A stretch of 64,000 nucleotides of DNA from Yinghuangia soli (GTDB lineage: Bacteria > Actinomycetota > Actinomycetes > Streptomycetales > Streptomycetaceae), in assembly GCF_021502675.1 (NCBI RefSeq), contig NZ_JAKFHA010000004.1:180565-244564 (forward strand), in the 5' to 3' direction. Shown in pieces: positions 5,867 through 24,753 of the stretch (its first letter is position 1; each line of letters starts with the position of its first letter). The notes beneath the pieces are model-generated. The model was not told the origin of the DNA and ran no database searches. It was given only the letters and a program-made list of their open reading frames with translations. Made by a program: the position numbers and the translations under genes.

Positions 5867-5925
5867 CCGGCCGCCCCCGCGACGTCCGGTCCCGCGCCCC
5901 GCGCTCCTGCCCTGCGTCCCCGCCT

Positions 5926-5950
5926 CCGCCCGGCCGCTCCGGCCGGGCGG
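5926..5950. terminator. Bidirectional terminator hairpin
   Basis: A perfect 11-bp inverted repeat, CCGCCCGGCCG / CGGCCGGGCGG, with a CTC loop. It lies between the convergent phosphoribosyltransferase and whiB-family genes and abuts the whiB stop codon at 5951. Confidence 0.8.
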
Positions 5951-7234: not shown

Positions 7235-7245
7235 CCCGCCGTCAC

Positions 7246-7275
7246 GCGGCCGCGGGCGAAGTTGCCCGGGGCCGC
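7246..7275. terminator. Hairpin after the lipoprotein gene
   Basis: GCGGCC (7246-7251) pairs with GGCCGC (7270-7275), and inside it GGGC (7254-7257) pairs with GCCC (7264-7267) across a small internal loop. It lies 12 nt after the stop codon. Confidence 0.5.
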
Positions 7276-7301
7276 GGAGCAACCGCGCGGCCCTGCATTG
7301 C

Positions 7302-7324
7302 GTTCATGTGATCGACACACGAAC
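7302..7324. promoter_or_regulatory. Inverted repeat upstream of the penicillin-binding protein gene
   Basis: GTTCATGTG (7302-7310) and CACACGAAC (7316-7324) form a 9-5-9 inverted repeat with one mismatch. It sits about 125 bp before the PBP start. A -10-like TAGCGT follows near 7390, so this is an operator candidate; the regulator is unknown. Confidence 0.35.
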
Positions 7325-7447
7325 ATCGACAGCTCGGTCACAACCGGGTCCGGGTCCGCCCGCGGGCGCCCTGCCGGGTTCGGCGTTGGGTAGCGTGGCG
7401 GGACGTACGGCCGGGGATCCGGCGGTTGGCGGCAACAGGAGGCTCAA

Positions 7448-9355
7448 GTGGGCAGGTCAAGGCGACGGATTCCCTCGGTGGTGCCAGTGGCGCTGTCCGT
7501 CGTGGTCGCGGTCGCGCTCACCGGATGCAGCGGCGGTGGCGGGGACGGCAAGGACGCCTCGGAGCAGACCGCCAAGGACTTCCTTGCCAAGTGGCAGGCC
7601 GGCGACATCGCCGGCGCCGCCGCCCTGACGGACGACCAGGCCAAGGCGAGCGCGCAGCTCGACGCGGCGCGCCAGCAGCTCCAGCTGAAGTCCGGCGAGT
7701 ACGTGCCCGGCGCGTACACCAAGGGCAGCGGCGACAAGCCCGGCACGCTCGCGTACAAGTCGAAGATCATGGTCGGCGGCATCGCGCAGCCGGTCGAGTT
7801 CGACGCCGTGGTGCCCGTGGTCAAGAAGGACGACAAGCCGGTCGTGCACTGGCAGTCCACGATCGTGCACCCGCAGTACGCCGAGGGCAGCAAGTTCGTG
7901 AACTCGCGCAAGCTGCCCGACCGCGCCTCGATCCTGGACCGCCAGGGCAACCAGCTGGCCGGCTCGTCGCCGGTCGTCGCGATCAGCCTGTGGCCCGCCA
8001 AGATGGGCGCCAACGCGGACGCCATCTACGCGGAGCTGTCCAAGCCGCTGTACGACGTGGACGTGCCCAAGCTCAAGGAGCGGGTGGCCAAGACCGCGAA
8101 CCAGGACCAGGCCGTCGAGGTCGTCTCGCTCAAGAAGGACGTCTTCGAGTCGCAGGCCCGCGCCAAGCTCGCGCCGTTCGCGCCGGGCGTGCAGATCAAG
8201 GAGACGACGCAGCAGACGGCGCTGGCCGCCAAGCAGCTCGTCGGTACCACGGGCGCCGCGACCGCCGAGATCCTGGCGAAGAAGGGCTACGAGAACGCCG
8301 GGGCCGGCGACACCGTGGGCACCTCCGGCCTGCAGGCCCGCTACCAGGGCACGCTGGGCGGCACCGCGACCTCGAAGCTCACCATCGAGGGGCCGAACAA
8401 GCAGCCGGTGGCGACTCTGGTGGACATCCAGGGCAAGCCGGGCACTCCGGTCAAGACGACCATCGACAAGCGCCTGCAGGAGCTCGCCGAGCAGTCGGTG
8501 AAGATCTCCTCGGACAAGAACGCCGCGCTGGTCGCCATCGACACCAAGACCGGCGAGATCCTGGCCGCCGCGAACAACCCGCCGACCGGACAGAACCGCG
8601 CCTTCGAGGGCCACTACGCGCCCGGTTCGACGTTCAAGACGGTCACCGCGGCCGCGCTGCTGCAGGCCGGCCTCAAGCCGTCCGACCCGGCGCCGTGCGT
8701 CGCCACCGTGGTCGTCAACGGCCAGACCTTCAAGAACTACGACGCGCTCGACCCCATCCCGAACGCCGACTTCGGCACCGACTTCGCGATGTCGTGCAAC
8801 ACCGGCTTCATCGACCAGCGCAGCAAGCTGCAGAACGACTCGCTGGCCAAGGTCGCCAAGGACGTCTTCGGCATCGGCGATGCGTGGGACGTCGGCGCCA
8901 GCACCTTCGACGGCTCGGTGCCCGCCGCGACGAGCGCGAACGAGCTGTCCGCGTCGATGATCGGCCAGGGCAAGGTCCAGGCCAGCCCGCTGGTCATGGC
9001 CTCGGTCGCGGCCACCGTCGACTCCGGCACGTTCAACCAGCCGGTCCTGGTGACCGAGCCCGCGCTGCCCGGCCGGGTGGCCGCCAAGCCCGTCGACCCG
9101 GCGCTGGCCCAGGAGCTCAAGGGCCTCATGCAGCGCGTCGTGCAGAGCGGCACCGCGCAGGGCCCGCTGTCCGGTTCGGGCGCCGAGGGCGCCAAGACCG
9201 GCACCGCGGAGTTCTCCGAGGGCGGCGCGACCCTGACCAACGGCTGGATGATCGCCTTCAAGGGCGACATCGCGGTCGCGGTCATCGTGGAGAAGGGCAA
9301 GTCCGGCGGCGTCGCGGCCGGTCCGCTCGTCAAGGCGTTCCTCAGCGGCGTCTGA
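7448..9355 (+). CDS. Lipid-anchored penicillin-binding protein (MecA-N / transpeptidase)
   Basis: A 635-residue class B-type PBP that cross-links peptidoglycan outside the membrane. A signal peptide ends in lipobox ALTGC with Cys27. An NTF2-like MecA-N domain (about 40-150) and a dimerisation region precede the transpeptidase domain. Active-site motifs are intact: S394-T-F-K397, S449-C-N451 and K583-T-G585. The MecA-N domain resembles that of staphylococcal PBP2a-like proteins but is common in actinobacterial PBPs, so resistance should not be inferred from it. The GTG at 7448 has AGGAGG about 7 nt upstream. A strong terminator follows, so it is probably monocistronic. Confidence 0.93.
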   Translation: MGRSRRRIPSVVPVALSVVVAVALTGCSGGGGDGKDASEQTAKDFLAKWQAGDIAGAAALTDDQAKASAQLDAARQQLQLKSGEYVPGAYTKGSGDKPGTLAYKSKIMVGGIAQPVEFDAVVPVVKKDDKPVVHWQSTIVHPQYAEGSKFVNSRKLPDRASILDRQGNQLAGSSPVVAISLWPAKMGANADAIYAELSKPLYDVDVPKLKERVAKTANQDQAVEVVSLKKDVFESQARAKLAPFAPGVQIKETTQQTALAAKQLVGTTGAATAEILAKKGYENAGAGDTVGTSGLQARYQGTLGGTATSKLTIEGPNKQPVATLVDIQGKPGTPVKTTIDKRLQELAEQSVKISSDKNAALVAIDTKTGEILAAANNPPTGQNRAFEGHYAPGSTFKTVTAAALLQAGLKPSDPAPCVATVVVNGQTFKNYDALDPIPNADFGTDFAMSCNTGFIDQRSKLQNDSLAKVAKDVFGIGDAWDVGASTFDGSVPAATSANELSASMIGQGKVQASPLVMASVAATVDSGTFNQPVLVTEPALPGRVAAKPVDPALAQELKGLMQRVVQSGTAQGPLSGSGAEGAKTGTAEFSEGGATLTNGWMIAFKGDIAVAVIVEKGKSGGVAAGPLVKAFLSGV

Positions 9356-9463: not shown

Positions 9464-10501
9464 TCAGTGCCGGGGGTACGAGCCGTGCGCCCGGGCCGCC
9501 GCGGCCTGCTCCAGCGCGGTCCGCAGGAACGCCGCGGCATCCGCGCTCTCGACGGGGTCCGCGGACAGCAGCGGGCCCAGCAGCTCGGTCACCGCGACCA
9601 CCGGCGGTCCCACGCCCGCGAGTTCGGCCAGCGACTGGGCGGACACCGCAAGATCCGGGCCCTCGCCGCGCCGGGCCAGCCGGTAGCGGCGGAACAGCCC
9701 CTTGCGGTCCGGGAGATAGGCGCCGTTGAGCTCGCGGGCCAGGCGTACCGCGGTCTCCGAGGGCATCTCGGCGGGCCACTCGCGCAGTTCGAAACCCGCG
9801 GCGGGAGGCTGCGCATGCCCGTTCCGCGGCGCGCTGCCGCTCCCGTTGCCGCTGTTGTCGCCGGTGCCGTGCTGCGCGGCGTCCGCGACCGCGACCGCGC
9901 TGTCGAGCAGCCGGTCCACCAGCAGCGGTCCGAGCCGCTCGGGCGGCAACGACGCGGCGTGGATCGGGGGATGGCGCTGCATCAGGTCGAACCACCGGGA
10001 TCCCACCACGCGCAGGATGCCGTGGTACGTCGGCCGCCACGCCTCGTCGGCCGGCGCCGGCGTGATGGTGCGCAGCACCGTGTCGCGGCGCTCGCAGCGG
10101 GCCATCAGCCGGTGCGCGATGCGCCGGTCGCCCGGATCGGGGGAGCGCGACAGGTGCTCCAGCTCGATCGACACGTCCGGATCCGCCACGTCCACGAGCG
10201 CCTCGAGCGCGGCCCGGCGCCGCGGCCCCGGGGTCGCGGCGAAGGCGCGCACCCACATCACCACGGCCGGATTCGCGCTGCCCGCCGCGGTGCGCACGAG
10301 ATCGGGGAACAGCTCGGGCTCGGCCACCGACAGCGCGTCCATCAGGGTGACCGAAAAGCGCGGCTGCAACTGTTCGGGCACCGCCACGCACACCAGGATC
10401 GCGAGCAGGTCCGCCCGGGTCGCGGCGTCCGGGTGGGACGCGGCGAGGTCCAGCAGACGCTCGGCGGACTCGGGTGCGAGCGGTTCGCACACGTCGATCA
10501 C
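9464..10501 (-). CDS. HEAT-like helical protein of unknown function
   Basis: A 345-residue, Ala/Leu-rich, mostly helical protein. The N-terminal two-thirds look like degenerate HEAT/ARM-type helical pairs. A Gly/Ser/Asn linker at about 210-225 breaks the helical pattern, and a second helical segment follows. It has no signal peptide or membrane span. The GTG at 10501 is preceded by GGGAGG at about 7 nt. It is divergent from the small gene at 10745 and shares the palindromic control region with it. I cannot assign a biochemical role; a scaffold or adaptor is possible. Confidence 0.7.
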   Translation of the reverse strand: MIDVCEPLAPESAERLLDLAASHPDAATRADLLAILVCVAVPEQLQPRFSVTLMDALSVAEPELFPDLVRTAAGSANPAVVMWVRAFAATPGPRRRAALEALVDVADPDVSIELEHLSRSPDPGDRRIAHRLMARCERRDTVLRTITPAPADEAWRPTYHGILRVVGSRWFDLMQRHPPIHAASLPPERLGPLLVDRLLDSAVAVADAAQHGTGDNSGNGSGSAPRNGHAQPPAAGFELREWPAEMPSETAVRLARELNGAYLPDRKGLFRRYRLARRGEGPDLAVSAQSLAELAGVGPPVVAVTELLGPLLSADPVESADAAAFLRTALEQAAAARAHGSYPRH

Positions 10502-11578: not shown

Positions 11579-11753
11579 AACGGGCCCCCGAGGCCCTACA
11601 GTCGGGCGACGAAGCCGCCGCGTCCCGCCCCGCCACGGGCGGGCCGCGAGGCCTCGTGGACGTCGTCCGGCGTTCATGTCCGTGAAATCCTGTTGCCCCC
11701 TGATCCGGCGCGTCGGATCCTGGCGACATGTTCGATCCAGCCAGGAACAAGTC

Positions 11754-13202
11754 ATGACCAGTCGGGCACGTGCCGCGTACGAGTCGGCGGACCCCGCCGA
11801 TGCCGCAGGCACCCCGGCCGGCCACCCGCTGCAGTCCGACCTGCTCGCGCAGCTGCGCAGCGGCCACGGGGAGGGCGCCCGCCGGGCGCTCGCCGCCGAC
11901 GGCCCCGCCGCGCGCGCCGAGGTGGCCGCCGCACTCGATTCGTGCGTCCTCCGCGATCCGCGCGCCGTCCCGGCGACCGAATCGCGCTCCCTCTACTACG
12001 CACGCCTGTACCACCGGCTCGACGCCCCCCTCGACGCCCTGTCCGCGCACCTGCTGTGCGACGCCGACTGGGAGGACGAGGACGCCGAGCGCACCGCCTT
12101 GCCCTTGGCCGTGCTGGGCAACTTGGCCCGATTCGGCCGCACCGACGCCGTCGACCTGCTGCGCGCCTACGCCGCGGAAGGCCGCGACTGGACCCTCGCC
12201 CTGGAGCAGTTGGCGCACGCCGCCGACCCGCACGCGCTCACCGGCATGCTCGCGCTCGCCCTGGAACGGGCCGATGACGAGGAGCTGTACGAGTGCGTGC
12301 GCCGAGGTACCGGCATGCGCCCGTGGCGCATGTGGGGCTTCGCCAACGTGCGCATGCGGCGCATCGTGGAGAAGGTCGACCTCGACTGGTGGCGCTGGGA
12401 GCTGGCCCGCGGCAAGGCCGCCGCCCCCGAGCCCCGGCCCGCCGCCACGGTCGACCAGGTCCTGTCCGAGGCGGCCTCGAGCCCGCGCCGCAGCACGGTC
12501 TGCGGCAGAAGGCTCGCGACCCTCGCCACCCCCGAGCACCGCGGCCTGATCCTCGCCACCGCCTGGTCCGGCGCCGCGGGCGCCCGCATCGCGGCACTGC
12601 GCTACCTGGGCGACGTCGGCGACCCGGCCCTCCTGGACCTGGCCGAGACCGCGCTGGGCGCGCAGACCCCCGCACCCGTGCGCCAGGCCGCCGTGCAGGC
12701 GGTGGGCGCGCTGCGCAGCGGCGAGGCCGTCCTCCGCGCCCGGCGCTGGATGGGCGCCGACGGCCCCTTGGGCGAGGTCGCCGTCCGCATACTGGCCGGC
12801 GCCGGCGAATCCGCCGACGGACCCGCCCTCATCGCGGCCCTGCAGCGATGTCGGACCGCGGCCGCCGACGACCGCTTCACCCTGACCGACCTCGTGGACG
12901 GCATCGGCAGACTCGGCCTCACCGAGGCCCTCGACCCGGTCCGCGACGTCTACCGGGCCAGCCCCTGGGCCGGGCTGCGGTCCCGCGCCGTGGACGCCCT
13001 GGCCCGCATAGAGCCCGACTTCACCGCCACCACCGCGGTGGACTGCCTGTGGGACTGCGAGGCCGAGACCCGGCTCACCGCCGTCGAATGGGCCGACCTG
13101 AAGGTCGCCGGCGTACCCGACCGGCTCCGCGAACTCGCCCGCGACCCCGCGGAGGACGACGAGGTCCGCGAGGCGGCCCGGCAGCGGCTCGCCGCCGTGT
13201 GA
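11754..13202 (+). CDS. HEAT-repeat protein
   Basis: A 482-residue soluble protein made of helical pairs. Several repeats in the second half have the HEAT/PBS-lyase-like pattern (ALRYLGDVGDPALLDLAE, AVQAVGALRSGEAVLRARRW), consistent with a scaffold or adaptor. The ATG at 11754 has AGGAA about 6 nt upstream. It lies directly upstream of the condensin-like operon, but a hairpin (13255-13280) and a separate promoter lie between, so co-transcription is doubtful. A functional link to that operon is suggested only by adjacency. Confidence 0.78.
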   Translation: MTSRARAAYESADPADAAGTPAGHPLQSDLLAQLRSGHGEGARRALAADGPAARAEVAAALDSCVLRDPRAVPATESRSLYYARLYHRLDAPLDALSAHLLCDADWEDEDAERTALPLAVLGNLARFGRTDAVDLLRAYAAEGRDWTLALEQLAHAADPHALTGMLALALERADDEELYECVRRGTGMRPWRMWGFANVRMRRIVEKVDLDWWRWELARGKAAAPEPRPAATVDQVLSEAASSPRRSTVCGRRLATLATPEHRGLILATAWSGAAGARIAALRYLGDVGDPALLDLAETALGAQTPAPVRQAAVQAVGALRSGEAVLRARRWMGADGPLGEVAVRILAGAGESADGPALIAALQRCRTAAADDRFTLTDLVDGIGRLGLTEALDPVRDVYRASPWAGLRSRAVDALARIEPDFTATTAVDCLWDCEAETRLTAVEWADLKVAGVPDRLRELARDPAEDDEVREAARQRLAAV

Positions 13203-13337: not shown

Positions 13338-13343
13338 TACTCT
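13338..13343 (+). promoter_or_regulatory. -10 element for a leaderless condensin-like operon transcript
   Basis: TACTCT fits the TANNNT actinobacterial -10 consensus and ends 8 nt before the GTG at 13352, which has no Shine-Dalgarno sequence. This supports a leaderless mRNA starting at or near that GTG. Confidence 0.5.
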
Positions 13344-13351
13344 TGTCGACC

Positions 13352-15118
13352 GTGACCGTTTCCGCCCAGGCTGCCCGTGTTGGCACCCCCGCCATCCCCG
13401 GGGCCGCGCCGTACCGCGCCGGGGTCACCGAGGACGGCCTCGCCCGGCGCCTGAAGGCCCTCGCCTGCACCGCGCCGCTGCACGACCTGGAAGCGCGCAA
13501 GGCCAACCTGGCCGGCGAGTACTCGGTCTACGCCATGGCCGAACTCGGCCTCACCGCGATCGACCTGGTCACCGTGACCATGGACTTCGACACCGGCGCG
13601 GACCACGAAGAGGTCGTCGCGCGGCTGCGCCCCCGGGTCGCCGCGCAGGCCCCCGACCGCGGCCCCGCCGAGCACGAGCGGGTGGCCCGCTGGGTCCTCG
13701 AGAGCCTCATCAACGTCGGCAGCGTCGACCGCGGCTTCCGCGCGGTCTACGGCACCTGGACCCAGGCCGACGGCTACGTCCGCCGCGACTACGACTTCAA
13801 GCTCCTCGAAGAAGTCCCCGGCCCGGACGGCGACATCTTCCTGCGGGCCACCGACGAGGCGGTCAACGTCCTGGTCGGCGCCCTCGACACGGACGTCACC
13901 AGCGCGCAGATCGCCGCCGAGGTCAAACTCGAGCACCTCATCCGCCGCGGCCGCCTGGCCGAGGCCAGGTTCGCCGCCGAGCAGGCCCGCTACCGGACCG
14001 TGCAGTACGCCGAGACGCTGCGCCGCGCCCTGGAGGCCACCCGCCGCAACGTCCGCGCGGTCGACTGGCTCAAGGCCGTGCCCGACCTGATAGACGAGGC
14101 ACTCGACCACGTCGCCGAGCGCTACCGGCACGAGAACGCCATCCTCACCAACATCCGCCGCGCCCGCGACGAGGCCGAGGAACCCGAGCACAAGCGCAGC
14201 GCCGCCGAACTGGTCGACATCGTCCAGGACTGCATCCGCCGCCACACCCAGCTGCAGACCCGCCTCATGGAGGCCGGGCCGCTCTTCCGCGCGGAGCAGG
14301 ACCGGCAGGCGTTCGCGGCCCGCCCGCAGCGCCCCGGGCTGGACCTGTACGGGCAGCTGCTGCGCCCGGTCCTCGAACTGCCCGTGGGCGACGCGCGGGC
14401 CGTCACCGACCGGTTCTTCGCGGCCGGCACCGGCCTGCGCACCCCGGTCGCGGTCCGCCTGCACGACCTCACCGAACTGCTGCTCACCCCGCCCGTCGAG
14501 CGCGAGCACCTGGGCGCCGAGGTGCCCGAGCCGGACCTGGTGGCGACCCCGGACGACAGCCGCTTCAGCGAGGCCCAGCACGACGCCGCGGCCGCGCTGC
14601 TCGACCTGCCGCCGGACGCCCCGCGCCGGCTGTCCGGCCTCCTCGCCGAGGCCCGCGCGGGCGACCCCGACCTGCCGTACCTGGTCGCCCTGCTGGCCTT
14701 CCACGCGGCCTCCCCGCCGGTCGGCACCGCGCTGCGCCAGGGCGACCGGTCCCTGCTGGTCGCCATCGACGACGGCGTGATCCTGGACGACCCCGAGGTC
14801 GGCGGCGCCGACCTGATCGTGGGCACCGCCCTTCTGGCCGCCGAAGGCGAGCCCCAGGGGGTCGATGCCGCGGGTCCGACGGAGTCCGCCCCCGCGATGC
14901 TGCCGGACGCCGCCTTCGAGGTACCCCTGCACTCCGACGCGGTACGCCCGCCCGGCGCGCTCCCGCGCGCCGACGCGCCAGGCCCCGCGGCGGAACTCGC
15001 GGGGGAGCCGGCGCAGCCGGCCGGCGTCCCGAACCCGGGTGGTGCGGTTCAGGATTCCCCTTCCGAGCCCGGCGCGCCGGGCCCGGATGACCCCATCGAC
15101 AGGCGGAACCGCGCGTGA
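13352..15118 (+). CDS. Kleisin/MukF-JetA-like subunit of a condensin-like complex
   Basis: A 588-residue soluble protein and first gene of a three-gene operon. Residues about 20-150 could be a winged-helix-type N-terminal domain. A long helical, charged region follows (about 190-330), and the C-terminal 100 residues are Pro/Ala/Gly-rich and probably disordered. I call it kleisin-like mainly from context: it is the largest non-ATPase partner of a MukE-like gene and a giant SMC-like ATPase in the order of MukF-E-B, MksF-E-B and JetA-B-C. Its stop overlaps the next GTG in a GTGA. In this class the protein would bridge the ATPase heads. Sequence similarity to JetA/MukF is not obvious by eye, so the family call is an inference. 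Confidence 0.65.
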   Translation: MTVSAQAARVGTPAIPGAAPYRAGVTEDGLARRLKALACTAPLHDLEARKANLAGEYSVYAMAELGLTAIDLVTVTMDFDTGADHEEVVARLRPRVAAQAPDRGPAEHERVARWVLESLINVGSVDRGFRAVYGTWTQADGYVRRDYDFKLLEEVPGPDGDIFLRATDEAVNVLVGALDTDVTSAQIAAEVKLEHLIRRGRLAEARFAAEQARYRTVQYAETLRRALEATRRNVRAVDWLKAVPDLIDEALDHVAERYRHENAILTNIRRARDEAEEPEHKRSAAELVDIVQDCIRRHTQLQTRLMEAGPLFRAEQDRQAFAARPQRPGLDLYGQLLRPVLELPVGDARAVTDRFFAAGTGLRTPVAVRLHDLTELLLTPPVEREHLGAEVPEPDLVATPDDSRFSEAQHDAAAALLDLPPDAPRRLSGLLAEARAGDPDLPYLVALLAFHAASPPVGTALRQGDRSLLVAIDDGVILDDPEVGGADLIVGTALLAAEGEPQGVDAAGPTESAPAMLPDAAFEVPLHSDAVRPPGALPRADAPGPAAELAGEPAQPAGVPNPGGAVQDSPSEPGAPGPDDPIDRRNRA

Positions 15119-16017
15119 CCGACCCCAGCAGCTCCTCCACCTCCTTCCCCGGCCAGGACCGGCACGCGTCCCCGGGCGGCAGCCCCGCCGCGGCGCCGAT
15201 CACCTCCGCGGACGTCAGCGACGCCGCCCGGCTCGTCGCGTTCGGCCTGCAGCCCAAGCTGCTGCCCGCGCGCGACGCCGAGTACGCCGAGCTGGTGCGC
15301 CGGCACCGCGAGGACCCGCGCTTCGCCTCGCTCTGCGATGCGGTCGCCGCCGGGCTCGGCCTGGTCGTCCTCGAAGTGTCGCCGCGCGCCGGCATGGCGG
15401 TCACCGCCGCCGAGGACTCCGTCTTCGCGGTCCGGATGAGCGACTACGCCCGGCGCGCGTCCACCGAGTCCGCCGACCGCTTCCTGCACGGCCTGGCCCA
15501 TCTGGCCATAGCGGCACTGGCGTTCCCGCGCCCCGAGGACCTCGCCGAGGACTCCTACGTGGGCCGCATCAGCGTGCACGGCGTCGACGCCTTCGTCCGG
15601 CAGGCCTGCCGGCGCCTCGAGGAGCGCGCCGAGCAGAGCGGCGAGAACATCGACCCGGCCGTCGACGCCCCCGGGCTGGAAGCCGCCTGGCGCGTGTACG
15701 CCCGGCGCAGCGCCACCGGGGCGACCAAGGACGCCCGGCGGCTGTCCGCCTCGACCGTCGGCATCGTCGGCAAGGCCGTCGCGTTCCTGGTCGACTCCGG
15801 CTTCCTGCAGCGCGTCTCCGACGAGGCGGGCGGCACCTACCGCACCACCGCCCGCTACCAGCTCCAGGTCCGCGACATGGCCGGCAGCGCGGCGATGAGC
15901 GAACTGCTCGAACTGGGCGTCGTCCCGGTGTCGGACGGCAGCGCGACACTGGTGCCGCCCACCGACGACGCGGGCGAGCTGGTGCCCGGCGCGGGACTGC
16001 CGTTCCACGGCGTCTGA
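15115..16017 (+). CDS. MukE/JetB-like winged-helix subunit
   Basis: A 300-residue soluble protein that starts at GTG 15115, overlapping the previous stop by 4 nt, so translation is coupled. After a Ser/Ala-rich tail it has two probable winged-helix units (about 70-165 and 175-265); the second ends with a wing-like pattern (VDSGFLQRVSDEAGGTYRTT). Two tandem winged helices are typical of MukE/MksE/JetB, which bind the kleisin. The assignment rests on predicted fold, size and operon position between the kleisin-like and SMC-like genes. Confidence 0.65.
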   Translation: MTDPSSSSTSFPGQDRHASPGGSPAAAPITSADVSDAARLVAFGLQPKLLPARDAEYAELVRRHREDPRFASLCDAVAAGLGLVVLEVSPRAGMAVTAAEDSVFAVRMSDYARRASTESADRFLHGLAHLAIAALAFPRPEDLAEDSYVGRISVHGVDAFVRQACRRLEERAEQSGENIDPAVDAPGLEAAWRVYARRSATGATKDARRLSASTVGIVGKAVAFLVDSGFLQRVSDEAGGTYRTTARYQLQVRDMAGSAAMSELLELGVVPVSDGSATLVPPTDDAGELVPGAGLPFHGV

Positions 16018-16075
16018 CCTCCGCGGCCCGCGCCCCGACCCCTGTCCCTGCTGAAGCGAGAGAAGACCGCCACCG

Positions 16076-19000
16076 ATGTACGAGCTGTCCCGCGTCCGCC
16101 TGTTCTCCATCGGGCCCGCGGGTGCGCGCTACGCCGACACCGTGCTCGACCTGCGCGGCGTCGGCGAGCCGGTGCCCGACCCGGCACCCCGGCAGGCCCA
16201 GCTCTTCGAGGGCGAGCCGGTCGGCCCGCCGCGCCGCCCCGCGCCCGCGGGCGTGCTGTTCCTGGAGAACGGCGGCGGCAAGTCGGTGCTGCTCAAGCTG
16301 ATCTTCTCGGTCATGCTGCCCGGCCACCGCAACACCCTGGGCGGCGCCAGCTCCGGCGTGCTGCGCAAGTTCCTGCTCGCCGACGACTGCGGGCACGTCG
16401 CGCTGGAATGGCAGCACACCCAGACCGGCGAACTCGTCGTGGTCGGCAAGGTCAGCGAATGGCGCGGCCGCCAAGTCTCCTCCGACCCGCGCAAGTTCGC
16501 CGAGGCTTGGTACTCCTTCCGGCCCGGCCCCGGCCTGACCCTGGACGACCTGCCGGTCGTCTCGGCCGGCCGGCGCCGCACGATGCGCGGTTTCCGCGAC
16601 GCGCTCGCCGAGACCGCCAAGCTCTACCCGGACGTCGACGTGGTCTGGGAAGAGATCCACGAGCGCTGGAACGACCACCTCAACCACCTCGGCCTCGACC
16701 CCGAACTCTTCCGCTACCAGCGCGAGATGAACGCCGACGAAGGCGAGGCGGCCGGCCTGTTCGCGGTCAAGAACGACGCGGACTTCGTCGACCTGCTGCT
16801 CCGGGCGGTCACCGACACCGCGGACACCGACGGCCTCGCCGACCTGGTGGACAGCTTCGCCGCCAAGCTCTCGCAGCGCGCCGAGCTGATGGCCGAACGC
16901 GACTTCGTGGAAGGCGCCACCGGCCTCCTGAACGCCCTCTCCGATGCCGCCGACCAGCGCGGCCGGGTGCGCGCCGCGCACCACGCCGCCGAGGACGAAG
17001 CCCGGCTGCTCGGCCGCGAGTTCGCGCTGCGCGCGGACCGCGAGCGGAGCCGCGCCGCGGACCTGTCCGACCAGGTCGCCGCGGCTGCCGAGTCGGTCGA
17101 CGCCGCGCAGCGCTCCCGCGCGCACACCGCACTGGTCACCGCCGAGATCACCCACCGGCACGCCGGCATGCGGCTGGCCGCCGCGGAGGCCGACGGCGCC
17201 GCCCTCAAGCGCGAACTGACCGAGGCCCGCGGCATGCTCGCCGCCTGGCTCGGCACCGAGGCGGTGCTGCGCCAGCGCTCCGCGGCCGACCGTGCCGAGC
17301 GCGTGGCCGCCGCCATCCAGGCCGCCGAGCGCGACGCCGCCCCGGCGCTCGCCGCCCGCCAGGCCGCGGCCGGCGCCCTCGTCCGCGCGCTGAACGCCGC
17401 CGCCGCGGTCGCCGACGAACGCGCCGACCAGGAAGAGCAGCGCGCCGCCGAGCTCCAGGAGCGCGGCGAGTCCGCGCAGCGCGCCGCCACCGTTGCGGCC
17501 ACCGAGACGCAGCGCACCCGCAGCGAGGCGGTCCACCTGCGGGCCCGGCTCAGCGAGGTGGGCAGCGAACTGGGCCAGGCCGTCGAGGCGGGCTGGATCG
17601 CCGAGGACGACGACCCCGCGGAGGCCGCCGAGCGCGCCGCCGCCGAGGAGAAGTCCGCCGCGACCGCCTGGAGCGAGGCCCGGGCCGCGGTCGAGTCCGC
17701 GGCCGGCGCGGTCCGCGACGCCGAGTCCGAACACGGCCGCGCCCAGCTGGAAGCGGCCCGCGCCGCGGACCGGCTCGGTGCCGCGGAGCACGAGCTGGCC
17801 GGCGTCCGCACGTCCTCCCGCGAACTCCTCGCCGAACCCCGGGTCGCCGAACTCCTCGGCCTGGAAGGCACGTCCGGCGCGGCGGACGACGGTCCGGCGG
17901 GCCCCGTGGCGGTCCTCGACCAGGCCGCCGACATCCTCGGCGGCCGGCTCGCGGACGCGGTCGCGGACGGCGAGCGCGCGCTGTTCCAGCTGCGCACCGA
18001 GGCCGCCGAGGACAGCCGCATCCTGGCCGCACTCGGCGACGGCGGCCTGCTGCCGCCCAACCCGGACGTCCTGGCCGCCGTCGAGCACCTCGGCGAGCAC
18101 GGCATCCCGGCGCTGCCCGGCTGGCGCTACCTGGCCCAGTCCGTACCCGCCGAACGGCACGCCGCGGTCCTCGACGCGCACCCCGACCTCGTCGACGGCG
18201 TCGTCGTCACCGCCCCGAGCGAAATGCCGCGTGCCCGCGAGGTGCTGGCCGAGGCCGCGCTGCTGCCGCGGTCCGCGGTCGCGGTCGGCACCCCCGACGC
18301 ACTGCTCGCCGCCCGGGCCGCGGCACCGGCCGCCGAGACCGTCTTCCTCGTCCCGCCGAACCCCGCGATGCACGACGAACGCGCCGCGGACACCGAACGC
18401 CAGGCGCTGCGCCGCCGCGCGACGGACCGCGACGACGCGATCCGGCAGCGCGCCGCCCGCCTGGAAGGCGACCGCAACCTGGTCGGACGCCTCGCCGCCT
18501 GGCGCGCCTCGTGCCCGGCCGGGCGGGTCGGCGAACTCGTCGCCGCGGTCCAGACCGCCACGCAGGCCCTCGTCGACGCCCGCGCGGCCGGCGCCGCCGC
18601 CGAGGCCGCCGCGGCGACCGCCGAGACCGTCCGGGCCCGCGCCGTCGACCAGCGCGACCGGCGCATGGACGCCGCGCAGCTCGCCCGGCGCCGCGCCGAC
18701 ACCCTGGCCGGCCTCGCCTTCCGGCTGCGCGAACGGGCCGGCTGGACCCGGCGGATCCGCGAACTCGACCAGGAGACCGGCGAGCACGAGCGGGCCGCCG
18801 AGGCCAACCTGAACCTCGCCCGGGCCGCCGACCAGGACCGCCGGCAGGCCCAGCGGGCCGCCGACGACGCCCGGCGCACCGCCCGCGCGCTGCTCGAGGA
18901 GCGCGCCGAGATCAGCGGCGCCCCCGACGACGACGCGGCCGCGTCCGGCGAACCGCCCGCCGCGCTGCCCGCGCTGCGTGAGGCGTACCGCACCGCATCG

Positions 19001-20665
19001 GTGCTGTACGACAAGGTCGGCGTCGGCGCCGACCTGCGTGCCGAGCAGGCCCGCGCGGAGAGTGAGCAGACCGCCGCGCAGGCCGCGTTGGACCGGCTGT
19101 CGGCGCGCGTCCGCAAGCACGCCGCCGAACTCCTGGAGAGCCCGGACGGTGCGGACGGCCCGTCGCGCCTGGCGGCCGGCAGCCGCGCCGAGGAACACGT
19201 GCGGACCCTGGAAGGCCGCACCGACGCCGCCAACGAACTCCTGGGCCGGCTCCGCGGCGAGGTCGAGCGCCACGCGCCCGGCGACGGCCGCGACGCGCAC
19301 GTCGAACTGCCCGCGGACCGGATCCCGAGCGACCCCGCGCACGCGCAGGAACTCCTGCGCGAGGCGGCCGCCGAGCATGCCGCCTGCACCGAGCAGGTCG
19401 ACACCGCCCGCGACGCGCACACCCGCCTGGTCCGGGCGCTGTCCGAAGCCGAGTCGGGCGTCTCGGTGTTCGGCGAGATCTCGGTCTCGCTGACCGACAC
19501 CCTGCCGGCCGCCGAGGCGGGTCAGGACGACGACTGCACCGCGTTCGAAGGCAGCTCCACCGAGGCCCGTGAGGCCGCCACCGCCTGCCGCCGCGCGCTG
19601 CGCACCGCGGCGGGGGAGTTGTCGGCCGCCGAGGGCCAGGTCCGGGAACGCGCCGAGGCCGTCGTCCGGCACGCCGGCTCGGCGCGCTTCGAGCAGGTCC
19701 GCATGCCGGCCCGCCAGCAGATCCGCGAACTCCCGCTGTCCGCACTGCCCGAGCATGCGCTCGCCTGGGCCGCCGCGTTCGAGCCGCGGCTGCGCGTCCT
19801 CACCGACGAGCTGGCCCAGATCGAACGCAACCGCGACAGCATCGTGGACCGGCTGCGCGGCATGGTCGAGTCGTCCCTCACCACCCTGCGGGCCGCCCAG
19901 CGGCTCTCCCGGCTGCCCGAGGAACTCGGCGAGTGGTCCGGGCAGGAGTTCCTGCGCATCCGCTTCGAGGATCCGGACGCCGCACACTTGTCCGAACGCC
20001 TGGGCGAGGTCGTCGACGAGGCCACCCGGGCGGCCCGCCGCACCGGCGCCGCCGCGGTCCGCCGGGACGGCATGACGCTGCTCCTGCGCGGCGTCCACGC
20101 GGGCCTGGAGCCGCGCGGCGTCCAGGTCGAGATCCTCAAGCCGGACTCCGTCCTGCGCGCCGAACGCGTCCCGGTCGGCCAGATGGGCGACGTCTTCTCC
20201 GGCGGCCAGCTCCTCACCGCCGCCATCGCCCTCTACTGCACGATGGCCGCGCTCCGCAGCAACGACCGCGGCCGCGCCCGCCACCGCCACGCGGGCACGC
20301 TTTTCCTGGACAACCCCATCGGCCGCGCGAACGCCTCGTACCTCCTGGAGCTGCAGCGCGCGGTCGCCGACGCGCTCGGCGTCCAACTGATCTACACCAC
20401 AGGCCTCTTCGACACGACGGCGCTCGCCGAGTTCCCCCTCGTCGTCCGCCTCCGCAACGACGCGGACCTCCGCGCGGGCCTGAAGTACATCTCCGTCGAG
20501 GAGCACCTGCGCCCCGGCCTCCCGCAACCCGACCCGGAAATCCCCGAGGGCCTGGGCCAGATCCACGCCACAAGGGTCTTCCGCAAACCGGCCGACACCC
20601 CGTCCGTCCCGCCCCAGACCCCGCAACCCGCCTCGAAGGACACCCCGGGCGTCAGCGTCCCCTGA
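16076..20665 (+). CDS. SMC-like ATPase (MukB/MksB/JetC-like)
   Basis: A 1529-residue SMC-like protein. The N-terminal head has Walker A with GGGKS (about residues 66-70). Two very long Ala/Glu/Arg-rich coiled coils flank a globular hinge-like domain at about 640-775. The C-terminal head has the ABC signature FSGGQ (about 1374) and a Walker B segment TLFLDNPIG (about 1408-1416). The residue after the Walker B Asp is Asn, not the usual catalytic Glu. Such proteins entrap and extrude DNA loops with kleisin and MukE-like partners. GAGAGAAG lies upstream of ATG 16076. No JetD/MksG-type nuclease gene follows: the next gene is convergent and encodes a membrane protein. Confidence 0.82.
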   Translation: MYELSRVRLFSIGPAGARYADTVLDLRGVGEPVPDPAPRQAQLFEGEPVGPPRRPAPAGVLFLENGGGKSVLLKLIFSVMLPGHRNTLGGASSGVLRKFLLADDCGHVALEWQHTQTGELVVVGKVSEWRGRQVSSDPRKFAEAWYSFRPGPGLTLDDLPVVSAGRRRTMRGFRDALAETAKLYPDVDVVWEEIHERWNDHLNHLGLDPELFRYQREMNADEGEAAGLFAVKNDADFVDLLLRAVTDTADTDGLADLVDSFAAKLSQRAELMAERDFVEGATGLLNALSDAADQRGRVRAAHHAAEDEARLLGREFALRADRERSRAADLSDQVAAAAESVDAAQRSRAHTALVTAEITHRHAGMRLAAAEADGAALKRELTEARGMLAAWLGTEAVLRQRSAADRAERVAAAIQAAERDAAPALAARQAAAGALVRALNAAAAVADERADQEEQRAAELQERGESAQRAATVAATETQRTRSEAVHLRARLSEVGSELGQAVEAGWIAEDDDPAEAAERAAAEEKSAATAWSEARAAVESAAGAVRDAESEHGRAQLEAARAADRLGAAEHELAGVRTSSRELLAEPRVAELLGLEGTSGAADDGPAGPVAVLDQAADILGGRLADAVADGERALFQLRTEAAEDSRILAALGDGGLLPPNPDVLAAVEHLGEHGIPALPGWRYLAQSVPAERHAAVLDAHPDLVDGVVVTAPSEMPRAREVLAEAALLPRSAVAVGTPDALLAARAAAPAAETVFLVPPNPAMHDERAADTERQALRRRATDRDDAIRQRAARLEGDRNLVGRLAAWRASCPAGRVGELVAAVQTATQALVDARAAGAAAEAAAATAETVRARAVDQRDRRMDAAQLARRRADTLAGLAFRLRERAGWTRRIRELDQETGEHERAAEANLNLARAADQDRRQAQRAADDARRTARALLEERAEISGAPDDDAAASGEPPAALPALREAYRTASVLYDKVGVGADLRAEQARAESEQTAAQAALDRLSARVRKHAAELLESPDGADGPSRLAAGSRAEEHVRTLEGRTDAANELLGRLRGEVERHAPGDGRDAHVELPADRIPSDPAHAQELLREAAAEHAACTEQVDTARDAHTRLVRALSEAESGVSVFGEISVSLTDTLPAAEAGQDDDCTAFEGSSTEAREAATACRRALRTAAGELSAAEGQVRERAEAVVRHAGSARFEQVRMPARQQIRELPLSALPEHALAWAAAFEPRLRVLTDELAQIERNRDSIVDRLRGMVESSLTTLRAAQRLSRLPEELGEWSGQEFLRIRFEDPDAAHLSERLGEVVDEATRAARRTGAAAVRRDGMTLLLRGVHAGLEPRGVQVEILKPDSVLRAERVPVGQMGDVFSGGQLLTAAIALYCTMAALRSNDRGRARHRHAGTLFLDNPIGRANASYLLELQRAVADALGVQLIYTTGLFDTTALAEFPLVVRLRNDADLRAGLKYISVEEHLRPGLPQPDPEIPEGLGQIHATRVFRKPADTPSVPPQTPQPASKDTPGVSVP

Positions 20666-20675
20666 GTGGTGGCCG

Positions 20676-20704
20676 CCGTGCCGCCGCGCCGAGCGGCGGT
20701 GCGG
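20676..20704. terminator. Hairpin between convergent genes
   Basis: CCGTGCCGCCGC (20676-20687) and GCGGCGGTGCGG (20693-20704) form a 12-bp stem with two G-U pairs and a GCCGA loop. It ends the condensin-like operon and/or the YndJ-like gene. Confidence 0.6.
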
Positions 20705-21574
20705 TCAGGCGGCGAGGTGGTGGACCTTGGCGGCGGCGGTCGCGGTCGTGTCGGCGGGCGGGGTGCCGGGGCGCGGGGTCCGCAGGGCCAGCAGGGTGCA
20801 GGTGGCGAAGCCGAGGGCGTTGGCCACTCCGTGGGTGGCGGCCATCCAGGTCAGGCTCAGGTGCGGGAAGTCGCTGACCAGGCCCAGGGACCAGCTCAGC
20901 GCGAGGAGCATGCTGGGGACCGGGACCAAGGCGGCTGCGGTCAGCAGCGTGCGTGCAGTGCGGGTGGCCGCGGTGGGGCGGGCGTGGTGCCAGATGGTCC
21001 AGGCGAGGGACCACATCGCCGCGGTCAGGGCGACTGCGCCTGCCAGTTGGAGCCAGGCGCCGGCGAAGTAGCCGAGCAGGACGGCGAGCGTCCCGGCGAC
21101 CGCGGCGACGGCTGCGAAGGAGCCGTGGCCGGGGGCGTTGCGGGTGCAGAGCAGGGCGGCGACGAGCATGGCGGCGAAACCCGTGTAGTGGAAGTGCGCT
21201 TCGGTGAGCGCCAGGATCGCGAGGTCGAAGCCGAAGAGCTCGTGGCCGGTGCGTTCGGCGGTCTGGGCGGTGGCGGCGACCGCGGGGGAGGCCAGGGCGG
21301 TGAGGATGGCCAGTTCGCGCGGGGCCAGGGAGCGGGTGCGGAGCAGGCGGGCCGGGGCGCAGGCGGCCAGGGCCAGGGTGGCGGCCAGGTAGAGCGCGGC
21401 GAGCGCGGCCGCGTCCGGGCCGCGGGGCATCCAGAGGGAGACGGCGCCCGGCACGGCGGCGAGCAGCCACACCCGGGACAGCGCCACGGCGCCCGGGTCG
21501 GGCAGCAGCCGCAGGCCCGCGGGCAGGATCACGAGCATGCCGAACGTGACGAGCAGGTTCACGAGAGGAACCAT
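20705..21574 (-). CDS. YndJ-like integral membrane protein
   Basis: A protein of about 289 residues with roughly eight hydrophobic spans. HFHYTGFAAM in the middle and MAATHGVANALGF near the C-terminus match motifs of the YndJ family, whose function is unknown. ATG 21574 is preferred over the adjacent GTG 21577 because the GGGGG on the sense strand is 5 nt from the ATG but only 2 from the GTG. Two identical palindromes just upstream (21589-21632) suggest tight repression by a TetR-type protein, none of which is encoded nearby. Confidence 0.78.
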   Translation of the reverse strand: MVPLVNLLVTFGMLVILPAGLRLLPDPGAVALSRVWLLAAVPGAVSLWMPRGPDAAALAALYLAATLALAACAPARLLRTRSLAPRELAILTALASPAVAATAQTAERTGHELFGFDLAILALTEAHFHYTGFAAMLVAALLCTRNAPGHGSFAAVAAVAGTLAVLLGYFAGAWLQLAGAVALTAAMWSLAWTIWHHARPTAATRTARTLLTAAALVPVPSMLLALSWSLGLVSDFPHLSLTWMAATHGVANALGFATCTLLALRTPRPGTPPADTTATAAAKVHHLAA

Positions 21575-21588
21575 CACGACCCCCTGAA

Positions 21589-22895: not shown

Positions 22896-22929
22896 CAGGG
22901 CCGTGCCGTGGGCACGCGGCACGGCCCTG
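22896..22929. terminator. Terminator between convergent genes
   Basis: CAGGGCCGTGCCG (22896-22908) and CGGCACGGCCCTG (22917-22929) form a perfect 13-bp stem with an 8-nt loop. Confidence 0.8.
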
Positions 22930-22974
22930 TGCGGTTCCCGGCGTGCTGTCCCGGCGTGCTGTCCCGGCGGCGAC

Positions 22975-23493
22975 TCAGCCGGGGAACTCCGCGTACACCG
23001 CGTCGGAGCGGTCCCGGCGCCCGGTGAGCATGCCGTCCGGGACCGGCCAGTGCGCCGCCGGGTCGTCCACCCGCACCCACTCGGTCGTCGCCACCCGCCG
23101 CGCGATGCGCCACTGCCCGTCCCGGCGCGTGAAGTCGTCGACGTAGCGGAATCCGGTGGTCAGATTGCCGCGCGGATCGTCCGTCGCACTGCGGTGGTAC
23201 GCCACCCCGTAGGTCTCCGCCCGCGCCAGGTCCGGGCCCTGGAACTCGGCCAAGTGGTTCGCGACCAGGTGCATCGTCATCGCGTACCGGGGCAGCAGCC
23301 GTCCGATCCAGGCCAGGAACTCGTCCACGGTCCCGGAGAAGCTGCCGTGGCTGTCCGTGGCATCCGGGTGGTAGCAGGCGCGCACCAGCTCCAGGTCCAT
23401 GCGGTCCACGCCCCGGCAGTAGCGCAGCACCGTCTCGTGGATGTCCTGCTTGTCCAGCAGCCGCCGCACCGCCGCGTCGTGATCATGAGCCAT
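22975..23493 (-). CDS. NTF2/SnoaL-like protein
   Basis: A 172-residue single-domain NTF2-fold protein. It opens with a helix pattern KQDIHETVLRYCRGVDRMD, then ACYHPDATD, the SnoaL-like/ring-hydroxylating-beta-like signature with a His-x-x-Ala core. Such proteins include hydratases, isomerases and cyclases; the substrate is unknown. ATG 23493 has no obvious Shine-Dalgarno site. It is divergent from the serpin genes. Confidence 0.8.
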   Translation of the reverse strand: MAHDHDAAVRRLLDKQDIHETVLRYCRGVDRMDLELVRACYHPDATDSHGSFSGTVDEFLAWIGRLLPRYAMTMHLVANHLAEFQGPDLARAETYGVAYHRSATDDPRGNLTTGFRYVDDFTRRDGQWRIARRVATTEWVRVDDPAAHWPVPDGMLTGRRDRSDAVYAEFPG

Positions 23494-23592
23494 GCGCGCA
23501 TTCTGGCGGCCGGGCGCTGCCGGTACCAGGGCGCCCGGCGGGGTAGCGTCGAAGAGAGGTCCATGATCGACGACGCCGGGGAGGCAGGCGCG

Positions 23593-24753
23593 ATGTACCA
23601 GCGCGAGGAGGAGCTGACCCTCCGCGAGTACGCCGGGGAGATCCGCGAGCTGGGCTCCCGTTGGCTGGACGGTGTCCTGTCCGACCCGCAGGTCGAGGCG
23701 GCCGGGGGAGACGCGGTCTGCTCGCCGGCCGGGCTGTGGCTCGCCCTCGCGGCGATATCCTGCGGCGCGCTGGGCGACACCGCCGACGAGCTGGCCGACC
23801 TGGTGGGCCTGGCCGGCCCCGAGGCCGCGCCGCTGGTGACCGCCGTGGCCCGCGACCTGGCCGGCACCGACGCCCTGGCCGCGGCGACGGGCATCTGGAG
23901 CCGCGCACCGCTGCGCGAGGAGTTCGCCGCCGGCCTGCCCGACGTCGGATGCGGGCCGCTGGGCGACCCCGCCGCGATCGCCGCCTGGATCCGGGACGCG
24001 ACCGGCGGACTCGTCGACAAACCCCCGGCCGCCCCCGGCCCGGACACCCGGCTGATCCTCGTGAACGCCCTGGCACTCCGGGCCCGCTGGGCCGAGGCGT
24101 TCGCACCCGCCGACACCCGCGAGGCGGTCTTCCGGCCGGCCGCCGGCGAGCCCGCCAGGGTCCGCATGATGTCCCGCACGCTGCCGCATGCCGACGTCTG
24201 GACCATCGGGGCGTACGGCGGTTCCGTACACGTCGCCGAGCTCGCGTGCGCCGGCGAGCAGCCCGCGGTGGTCCGCTTCGCGCTCGGCCCCGAGGGCATG
24301 CCGCCCGCCACGGTGATGGCCGCGGCCTGGGCCCCGCGCAGCGCGGGCAACCCCGTCCCGTACGAGGAAGTCCGGCTCTCCCTGCCGCGCTTCGAGCTGC
24401 GGACCTCGCTCGCGGTGCACGGCCACCTCCCGGCCCTGGGCGTCGAACTGGCGCTCGACGAACACGCTGCGGAGTTCGGCGGACTGTCGTCCGAACACCT
24501 GTACCTCCAGCGCGTCGACCAGGAGTGCGTCGTACGCGTGGACGAGGAAGGCGTGCAGGCTGCCGCCGTCACCGACGTGCAGATGGCCTGGATGAGCTAC
24601 ACGCCCCCGCCGCCGACCCTGAACCTCGCCTTCGACCGCCCGTTCGCCTGCGCGGTCATGGACGCCTCGGGCACCGTGCCGCTGTTCGCCGCGTACCAGG
24701 CGACCGCGCCGCGCCCCGGCGGGGAACCGGTGGCAGCGCATCCGGCCGGGTAG
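23593..24753 (+). CDS. Serpin-family protease inhibitor (paralogue 1)
   Basis: A 386-residue serpin without a signal peptide, so probably cytoplasmic. Recognisable serpin blocks: CSPAGLWLALA near residue 43, LVNALALRARW (the NAxxFKGxW block) near 157, hinge EEGVQAAA with Gly320 as P15, and the C-terminal FDRPFACAVMDASGTVPLF. Counting from P15 puts the scissile bond at Met334-Ser335, the same P1-P1' pair as human alpha-1-antitrypsin. ATG 23593 is used, not the in-frame ATG 23563: GGGGAGG precedes it at about 8 nt, and the paralogue keeps only the second ATG in frame. A -10-like TAGCGT lies at 23544-23549. Confidence 0.88.
   Translation: MYQREEELTLREYAGEIRELGSRWLDGVLSDPQVEAAGGDAVCSPAGLWLALAAISCGALGDTADELADLVGLAGPEAAPLVTAVARDLAGTDALAAATGIWSRAPLREEFAAGLPDVGCGPLGDPAAIAAWIRDATGGLVDKPPAAPGPDTRLILVNALALRARWAEAFAPADTREAVFRPAAGEPARVRMMSRTLPHADVWTIGAYGGSVHVAELACAGEQPAVVRFALGPEGMPPATVMAAAWAPRSAGNPVPYEEVRLSLPRFELRTSLAVHGHLPALGVELALDEHAAEFGGLSSEHLYLQRVDQECVVRVDEEGVQAAAVTDVQMAWMSYTPPPPTLNLAFDRPFACAVMDASGTVPLFAAYQATAPRPGGEPVAAHPAG

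What the first reader, a model, noticed from the sequence alone, without database searches (positions are those of the whole stretch)
13352..20665. Three-gene condensin-like operon without its nuclease
A kleisin-like, a tandem winged-helix (MukE-like) and a 1529-residue SMC-like ATPase gene are arranged like MukFEB, MksFEB and JetABC. Wadjet and MksBEFG also need a fourth gene (JetD/MksG, a Toprim/topo-VI-like nuclease) to cut plasmids. Here the operon ends in a hairpin and a convergent membrane-protein gene, and I see no such nuclease in the whole 64 kb. It could be a chromosomal condensin-like complex, a defence system using an unlinked nuclease, or a variant with another effector. The first two proteins are not obviously similar to known JetA/JetB by eye, so this may be a distinct family.
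Basis: partly seen in the sequence, partly recalled or inferred. Interest (0 to 1): 0.78.

Follow-up and report, generated by a model that had tools for sequence, protein, structure and literature searches.

The report
Core Wadjet-type motor without its nuclease
Three neighbouring genes encode a DNA-looping machine that descends from an anti-plasmid defence system but has no DNA-cutting part; nearly every sampled member of the Streptomyces family carries it, which suggests a defence machine turned into a housekeeping chromosome protein.

Summary
The trio is real: a MukF-like kleisin (JetA3), a tandem winged-helix KITE protein (JetB) and an SMC ATPase (JetC3) of the type III Wadjet family, not a new family. 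What stands out is the missing JetD nuclease. JetA3 occurs in 148 of 150 sampled genomes of the window's family (Streptomycetaceae); one of these, G405, the only one sampled of its genus, has just a divergent JetD-bearing copy. This copy is syntenic and under purifying selection. A JetD_C domain occurs in 19 of the 150, never near it; 35 of 36 tested genomes carrying it have no type III JetD anywhere. True JetABCD operons coexist as accessory elements in some of the same genomes. Trees nest the core clade among JetD-bearing operons. A second JetD-less clade (Amycolatopsis/Prauserella) sits at another locus; one common JetD-less clade is rejected. So JetD was apparently lost more than once and the motor kept. 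Most likely this is a defence-derived condensin acting on the chromosome beside the ScpA-containing one. That function is inferred, not shown. It resembles the proposed JetD loss behind P. aeruginosa MksBEF, but in type III and nearly fixed across a family.

The parts
11676..13202 (+). HEAT-repeat protein gene (508 aa), upstream neighbour conserved with the locus; possible but unproven functional partner
   Evidence: PF13646 E 1.5e-5, below the gathering score; match in 148 of 150 family genomes; upstream of the core JetA in 112 of 112 genomes with both on one contig, same strand in 109
13343..15118 (+). JetA, MukF-like kleisin of Wadjet type III (591 aa from TTG 13343; alternative GTG 13352)
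   Evidence: PADLOC PDLC00567 JetA3 622 bits; AlphaFold pLDDT 73.5; Foldseek first two rows are MukBEF entries, E 4e-4; VIA Z 14.0 over 142 residues to MukF 3rpu_B, with CorA tied at 13.2
15115..16017 (+). JetB, tandem winged-helix KITE subunit (300 aa)
   Evidence: AlphaFold pLDDT 80.4; Foldseek rows 1-9 all from MukEF/MukBEF or JetABC entries, best E 3.7e-3; VIA Z 8.2 / 8.1 to Wadjet chains 8as8_C / 8dk1_E
16076..20665 (+). JetC, SMC-type ATPase of Wadjet type III (1529 aa)
   Evidence: PADLOC PDLC00588 JetC3 1432 bits, residues 1-1507
16265..16285 (+). Walker A motif ENGGGKS of JetC (residues 64-70)
20192..20209 (+). ABC signature motif VFSGGQ of JetC (residues 1373-1378)
20300..20323 (+). 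Walker B region LFLDNPIG of JetC (residues 1409-1416); the DN pair is in all 16 type III JetC rows aligned, JetD-bearing ones included
20681..20699 (.). GC-rich hairpin CCGCCGC-GCCGA-GCGGCGG between convergent jetC and yndJ, no T tract
   Evidence: sequence; not called as a terminator
20705..21577 (-). convergent YndJ-like membrane protein gene closing the operon; not a nuclease
   Evidence: PF14158 E 3.8e-71

Best explanation
A type III Wadjet motor (JetABC) that lost its JetD nuclease in an ancestor of the Streptomycetaceae and was kept as a core chromosomal complex. Shown by computation: the three subunits, motif-intact ATPase, absence of type III JetD, near-universal syntenic vertical inheritance, purifying selection, and nesting among JetD-bearing operons with a second JetD-less lineage. 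Inferred: the complex still binds DNA and extrudes loops ATP-dependently, but instead of leading to cleavage of small circles by JetD it acts on the host chromosome, as an extra condensin beside the ScpA-containing one (compaction, arm organisation or segregation).
For: Identity. Breadth: JetA3 in 148 of 150 family genomes, 136 of them with one match; without G405 at most 147 genomes and 16 of 17 genera. JetD: PF09983 in 19 of 150, each on another contig or at least 300 kb from the core JetA (my comparison); type III JetD profile positive in 2 of 38 genomes: G193 at its accessory JetABCD, and G405, which lacks the core copy. Vertical: all 11 genera with two or more rows are monophyletic in the JetC tree (handles matched by eye). 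Constraint: dN/dS at most 0.21 in 9 pairs. Conservation: positions at least 90% conserved in JetD-bearing rows are kept (changed: 0 of 81 in A, 0 of 40 in B, 6 of 157 in C). Repeated loss: starred branches of the quick tree force 3 label changes; a joint JetD-less clade rejected, p-AU 1.2e-28. Second locus in Amycolatopsis/Prauserella near gap-pgk-tpi-like genes. Precedent: PMC10586767 (passages) says P. [quoted passage not shown]
Against: No functional data. The genomes also have ScpA (35 of 37 relatives), so the job is not obviously vacant. In the family of Amycolatopsis JetA3 is patchy (37 of 120). One single-contig genome (G407, L114) has JetB and JetC broken into fragments, so the complex may be dispensable or that sequence faulty. 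In G428 (L100) four called genes lie between JetB and JetC. Two family genomes, G480 (99% complete) and G543 (71%), have no JetA3 match. Retention of conserved JetA/JetB positions means any JetD-docking surface has not visibly decayed.
Confidence: 0.58

Rival explanations
1. A defence complex using an unlinked nuclease encoded elsewhere in the genome: JetABC still senses small circles and recruits that enzyme.
For: JetA, JetB and most JetC positions conserved in JetD-bearing systems are kept, so a nuclease-docking surface could persist. Only JetD-type nucleases were searched. A few core-bearing genomes have a JetD_C gene of another kind elsewhere (e.g. G423, G428, G486, G544); the loci of three of these that I fetched (L135-L137: G423, G544, G486) show no type III JetA, B or C.
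Against: No type III JetD in 35 of 36 core-bearing genomes tested, and no JetD_C of any kind in 131 of 150 family genomes. The near-universal, syntenic, vertical distribution is unlike that of the accessory JetABCD copies.
Confidence: 0.17
2. A non-cutting silencer: JetABC compacts or sequesters plasmids or phage DNA without cleavage, a defence without a nuclease.
For: Motor parts intact. A passage of PMC10586767 speaks of compaction of circular DNA that prevents expression of viral genes, with the loader SIMC1/SLF2 (Smc5/6, as I read it).
Against: Near-fixation across a family is unusual for a defence gene; true JetABCD coexists in some of the same genomes, so a second plasmid sensor would be partly redundant.
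Confidence: 0.13
3. The effector has been replaced: the HEAT-repeat protein encoded upstream is a new partner of the complex (a bacterial analogue of HAWK subunits).
For: Match in 148 of 150 family genomes; G405 (no core copy) and G543 (no JetA hit, 71% complete) lack it too. Upstream of JetA in 112 of 112 genomes with both on one contig. Nearly adjacent to JetA in the window, its genus, genera g240 and g250, and three named Streptomyces.
Against: Median start-to-start distance is 7.9 kb, with unrelated metabolic genes in between, so they usually cannot be one operon. G480 has a HEAT match but no JetA3. Not found at the JetD-less loci of Amycolatopsis in the stretch held. G405 also lacks ScpA, so its gaps may be assembly. 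Only a weak HEAT_2 hit.
Confidence: 0.08
4. A remnant of a defence system without function that is slowly decaying.
For: Broken in G407; interrupted in G428.
Against: dN/dS at most 0.21 in 9 pairs; 148 of 150 genomes; ATPase motifs intact.
Confidence: 0.04

Closest known systems
Wadjet type III (JetABCD, PADLOC JetA3/JetC3/JetD3)
   Same: Gene order A-B-C, tight A-B coupling, JetA3 and JetC3 profiles over nearly full length, homologous JetB, same Walker/signature motifs
   Different: No type III JetD gene in the operon or genome; near-universal syntenic gene set of a bacterial family rather than an accessory element
P. [quoted passage not shown]
   Same: MukF/MukE/MukB-like trio without nuclease, in a genome that also has Smc-ScpAB (the latter for P. 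aeruginosa recalled)
   Different: Type III lineage with no Pfam or NCBIfam match; more than one loss of JetD; nearly fixed throughout Streptomycetaceae
MukBEF
   Same: Folds of A and B and kleisin-KITE-SMC arrangement
   Different: No sequence match to solved MukF/E/B chains or Pfam models; here it coexists with ScpA
MksBEFG of Corynebacterium glutamicum
   Same: Actinobacterial SMC-like complex of the same general architecture
   Different: That system keeps the MksG nuclease and restricts plasmids (PMC10123090, passages). The profile of type III JetD from other loci shows only a weak hit to MksG (8b7f, E 0.1)

Membership tests
Wadjet type III defence system | JetA kleisin of type III | tested here: met
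   PDLC00567 622 bits, residues 27-510
Wadjet type III defence system | JetC SMC ATPase of type III with intact motifs | tested here: met
   PDLC00588 1432 bits, residues 1-1507; motifs
Wadjet type III defence system | JetB tandem winged-helix subunit | tested here: met
   Homologous to JetB of the JetD-bearing operon L081 (46% identity in the best segment); fold nearest JetB/MukE. PADLOC is silent for it and for two control JetBs
Wadjet type III defence system | JetD nuclease in the operon | tested here: not met
   Absent at the locus and in the whole genome; controls positive (C. glutamicum; G193 and G405)
Wadjet type III defence system | Restriction of circular plasmids | not testable with these tools
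   needs transformation assays
MukBEF | Folds of kleisin and KITE subunits | tested here: met
   MukF rows lead for A (CorA rows close behind), JetB and MukE rows lead for B; Z values for B are modest
MukBEF | Sequence membership in MukB/E/F families | tested here: not met
   No MukF, MukE or MukB model among Pfam or NCBIfam hits at E up to 10
MukBEF | Replaces Smc-ScpAB as the genome's condensin | tested here: not met
   ScpA (PF02616, 198 bits) in the same genome; Smc itself was not searched
JetD-less condensin of the MksBEF kind | Kleisin-KITE-SMC trio with the nuclease absent, at a conserved chromosomal locus | tested here: met
JetD-less condensin of the MksBEF kind | Contributes to chromosome organisation | not testable with these tools
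   needs Hi-C or microscopy of a deletion strain
Smc-ScpAB | ScpA-type kleisin | tested here: not met
   No PF02616 match for protein A; the genome's ScpA lies on another contig

The most novel reading that the evidence does not exclude
The Streptomycetaceae possess a second, defence-derived condensin, about as universal in the family as the ScpA-containing one, that shapes their chromosomes with a HEAT-repeat partner encoded by the ancestral upstream gene; the same conversion of a plasmid-cutting machine into a chromosome machine happened separately in Amycolatopsis and its relatives.
Probability: 0.1. Interest if true: 0.9.

Novelty: new variant of a known kind. Interest (0 to 1): 0.7.

Why it matters
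[quoted passage not shown] Here is a natural experiment: a type III motor without its nuclease, nearly fixed across a large, genetically tractable family, with nuclease-bearing relatives in some of the same genomes and a second JetD-less lineage elsewhere. Two Streptomyces chromosome-organisation papers searched by term name SMC and, in one, HupS; neither holds the word Wadjet, and the only Mks mentioned is that of Mycobacterium smegmatis. So a core SMC complex of a well-studied genus may have been overlooked. Defence-annotation profiles (PADLOC JetA3/JetC3) label these genes as Wadjet parts although the cutting part is missing.

Tried and rejected
Pfam and NCBIfam scans of A, B and C gave only chance-level hits. 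PADLOC gave no JetB hit, but two control JetBs had none either, so this was not used against B. PDB sequence searches with profiles of A, B and C found no relative, only coiled-coil or chance rows. A viral-contig scan with the JetC alignment confirmed nothing. The idea that a fourth gene recurs next to JetC was rejected: downstream genes differ between genera, and the frequent ones I scanned are conservon genes (NIT/HATPase, Roadblock, DUF742), with oxoprolinase genes upstream; 3 of the 10 neighbours scanned had no Pfam match. The idea that the core lost a visible JetD-docking signature was tested and not supported. The HEAT gene as an obligate operon member was rejected because of the usual gap, but kept as a rival.

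Limits. Only 36 core loci of the family were fetched and examined (window included); the other family genomes were judged by match score and position. Of 49 named core-type loci 3 were put on a tree. Trees: the script dropped L209, L140 and L113 (JetC too short), leaving 56 rows; one search used 34 and one search used 22 of those 56; the JetC tree kept only rows over 1300 aa. In one search L114 was labelled 'acc' by my script although it is a core copy with broken JetC; that mislabel produces the '2 changes' in the JetA tree. The place of the core clade among the accessory clades was an open fork in the JetC tree, and treekit warned of long branches and uneven letter make-up. The AU group was named after I had seen a tree. 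The tree is an unfinished IQ-TREE file without supports; supports are from FastTree, whose careful search did not finish. Sciscionella's union with Amycolatopsis has weak support (0.575). One search scored the 55 best candidates per genome and the 17 best. One search left L116, L139 and L120 out of the JetD-bearing group. dN/dS of C was skipped in 2 of 9 pairs. In one search 117 of 150 genomes were transcribed. I searched for ScpA, not for Smc. The gene names gap, pgk, tpi, secG and whiA are my reading of protein sequences, not profile hits. The JetD_C loci L132-L137 were not identified further.

Papers: search listings; passages only of PMC10482375, PMC10586767, PMC13121528, PMC8410768 and PMC10123090. 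In these listings and passages I found no paper on a JetD-less Wadjet complex in Streptomyces; most subscription papers and preprints are not covered.
Full report
What is there. Three co-directional genes encode A (13343-15118), B (15115-16017, overlapping A by 4 nt) and C (16076-20665). Pfam and NCBIfam give only chance-level hits. PADLOC does better: A is JetA3 (PDLC00567, 622 bits) and C is JetC3 (PDLC00588, 1432 bits), both over nearly the whole length. B has no PADLOC hit, but neither do the JetB proteins of two true JetABCD operons. AlphaFold models made from 54-55 rows support the roles. B (pLDDT 80.4, pTM 0.72) has chains of MukEF/MukBEF and JetABC entries as its first nine Foldseek rows, best E 3.7e-3; VIA puts chains of E. 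coli and P. aeruginosa Wadjet first (Z 8.2 over 182 residues, 8.1 over 173). These are modest values, and single winged-helix regulators follow at Z 6-7, but over about half the length. A (pLDDT 73.5, pTM 0.53) has MukBEF entries as its first two Foldseek rows and MukF as its first seven VIA rows (Z 14.0 over 142 residues). That segment (residues 182-325) is helical, CorA is tied at Z 13.2 and designed bundles follow, so specificity rests on the order of rows and on the sequence match to JetA3. C keeps Walker A, signature and Walker B motifs; the DN instead of the usual DE in Walker B (usual form recalled) is in all 16 aligned type III rows, JetD-bearing ones included.

The nuclease is missing family-wide. 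JetA3 was found in 148 of 150 genomes of the window's family, 136 of them with one match; G480 and G543 have none. G405, the only sampled member of its genus, has just a divergent JetABCD, so the core copy is in at most 147 genomes and 16 of 17 genera. Named Streptomyces and Kitasatospora loci nest in the same clade, so the family is Streptomycetaceae. JetD_C (PF09983) was found in 19 of the same 150 genomes; comparing coordinates, each lies on another contig or at least 300 kb from the core JetA. A profile of 14 type III JetD proteins (A1) searched in 38 genomes hit two: G193, at a second JetABC copy with JetD, and G405. Thirty-six of the 38 carry the core copy, so 35 of 36 have no type III JetD anywhere; three of these (G419, G423, G428) do have a JetD_C match of another kind, in G419 only in a 68-aa frame. 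None of the 36 fetched core loci of the family has JetD in the stretch held. Among 80 named loci, 14 carry JetD in the stretch held; the 49 Streptomycetaceae-type core loci carry none, though in L186 under 1 kb downstream of JetC was held.

The accessory control. Fifteen fetched loci carry a type III JetD, 12 of them in this family (L081, L116, L121-L125, L127-L131) and 3 elsewhere in the phylum (L120, L138, L139); in the 12 where A, B, C and D are all recognised, JetD abuts or overlaps the end of JetC. In G193 both kinds coexist: the accessory copy L081 (best segments A 38%, B 46%, C 31% identical to the window, with JetD) and the core copy L082 (A 76%, B 78%, C 65%, without). This shows that the JetD search works on these genomes and that the absence is specific to the core copy.

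It behaves like a core gene set. The core copies form one clade in the JetC tree (35 rows), and all 11 genera represented by two or more rows are monophyletic. dN/dS is at most 0.21 in nine pairs. An upstream HEAT-repeat gene (11676-13202) has a match in 148 of 150 genomes and lies upstream of the core JetA in 112 of 112 genomes with both on one contig (of 117 transcribed), within 25 kb in 111 and on the same strand in 109. In 12 genomes with a long contig the locus lies 8-21% from a contig end and points outward in 11. Outside the family the gene set is rare: in a phylum sample JetC3 was found in 18 of 396 genomes, 12 of them family members and one of the other six only at chance level.

Origin. 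With JetD-bearing rows as outgroup, the core clade lies among JetD-bearing operons; the midpoint-rooted JetC tree agrees. A second JetD-less group appeared unasked: Amycolatopsis, Prauserella and Sciscionella (15 loci) plus Frankia L201, and L209, which is cut by a contig end. A whole-genome JetD search hit 2 of those 15 Pseudonocardiaceae genomes; as their JetABC loci carry no JetD in the stretch held, those genes lie elsewhere. The genome of Frankia L201 has a partial JetD match. In the wider family of Amycolatopsis JetA3 is in 37 of 120 genomes, and 7 of these 37 have a type III JetD. Of 16 such loci (15 plus L201), 13 have a gene that I read as gap a few kb downstream, with pgk-, tpi- and secG-like genes in 9, 10 and 8, and 6 a whiA-like gene upstream: a housekeeping locus different from the Streptomycetaceae one. 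The starred branches of the quick JetC tree force three changes of the JetD label, and holding Streptomycetaceae and Pseudonocardiaceae JetD-less rows together costs 91 log-likelihood units (p-AU 1.2e-28, 22 rows; the group was chosen after seeing a tree). With JetD-bearing outgroups the simplest history is repeated loss of JetD; one loss with regains is formally possible.

What it probably does. Positions at least 90% conserved in 23 JetD-bearing rows are unchanged in the core clade in A (0 of 81) and B (0 of 40) and nearly so in C (6 of 157), so the motor is conserved and not decaying. The genome also has ScpA, so this would be an additional complex. PMC10586767 (passages) describes JetABC as giving shape and size sensing and JetD as the cutting part, proposes a total-extrusion model, and says that P. 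aeruginosa MksBEF likely arose by loss of JetD and contributes to chromosome organisation. By analogy I propose that the core JetABC of Streptomycetaceae is a chromosome-acting loop extruder. The step from conserved motor to chromosome function is inference; an unlinked nuclease or a non-cutting silencing role remains possible. Against the reading: G407 has fragmented JetB and JetC on a single-contig genome, and G428 has genes inserted between JetB and JetC.

Verdict. The finding is a new variant of a known kind: the motor of a type III Wadjet system without its nuclease, nearly fixed in a bacterial family, with a second JetD-less lineage elsewhere.

Noticed in passing
L147, L149, L151 and other Amycolatopsis/Prauserella loci (about 4.5-11.5 kb in most): A second JetD-less JetABC lineage at a different conserved locus: of 16 loci compared, 13 have a gap-like gene downstream and 6 a whiA-like gene upstream.
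   Followed up: partly
window 22903-24753 and 24798-26093: Two tandem serpin genes (PF00079, E 1e-37 each) downstream of the operon; proteins of the same cluster (c16) recur downstream of JetC in genera g1 and g240.
   Followed up: partly
window 11676-13202 and 9464-10501: Two HEAT-repeat-like genes (weak HEAT_2 hits) just upstream of jetA; the first is conserved family-wide with the locus.
   Followed up: partly
L114 (G407): The core JetB and JetC are split into fragments in a single-contig genome: real decay or sequence errors.
   Followed up: no
L100 (G428): Four called genes lie between an intact JetB and an intact JetC.
   Followed up: no
G405 (L116): A family member that lacks the core JetABC, the HEAT gene and ScpA but has a divergent JetABCD with JetD: an odd lineage or an incomplete assembly.
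   Followed up: partly
L140 (G279), 5735-9308: A JetA-JetB-JetC-like locus in another family where only the first part of JetC is recognisable and no type III JetD is in the genome.
   Followed up: partly
L082 666-4402 and equivalents: A conservon (NIT-HATPase, Roadblock, DUF742) follows the core JetC in many genera but not in the three loci of the window's genus.
   Followed up: partly
L132-L137: JetD_C genes in family genomes whose surroundings show no type III JetA, B or C: other JetD-type systems, not identified.
   Followed up: no
window 51962-53632: A Y-family DNA polymerase gene (IMS, PF00817) lies in the same window.
   Followed up: no
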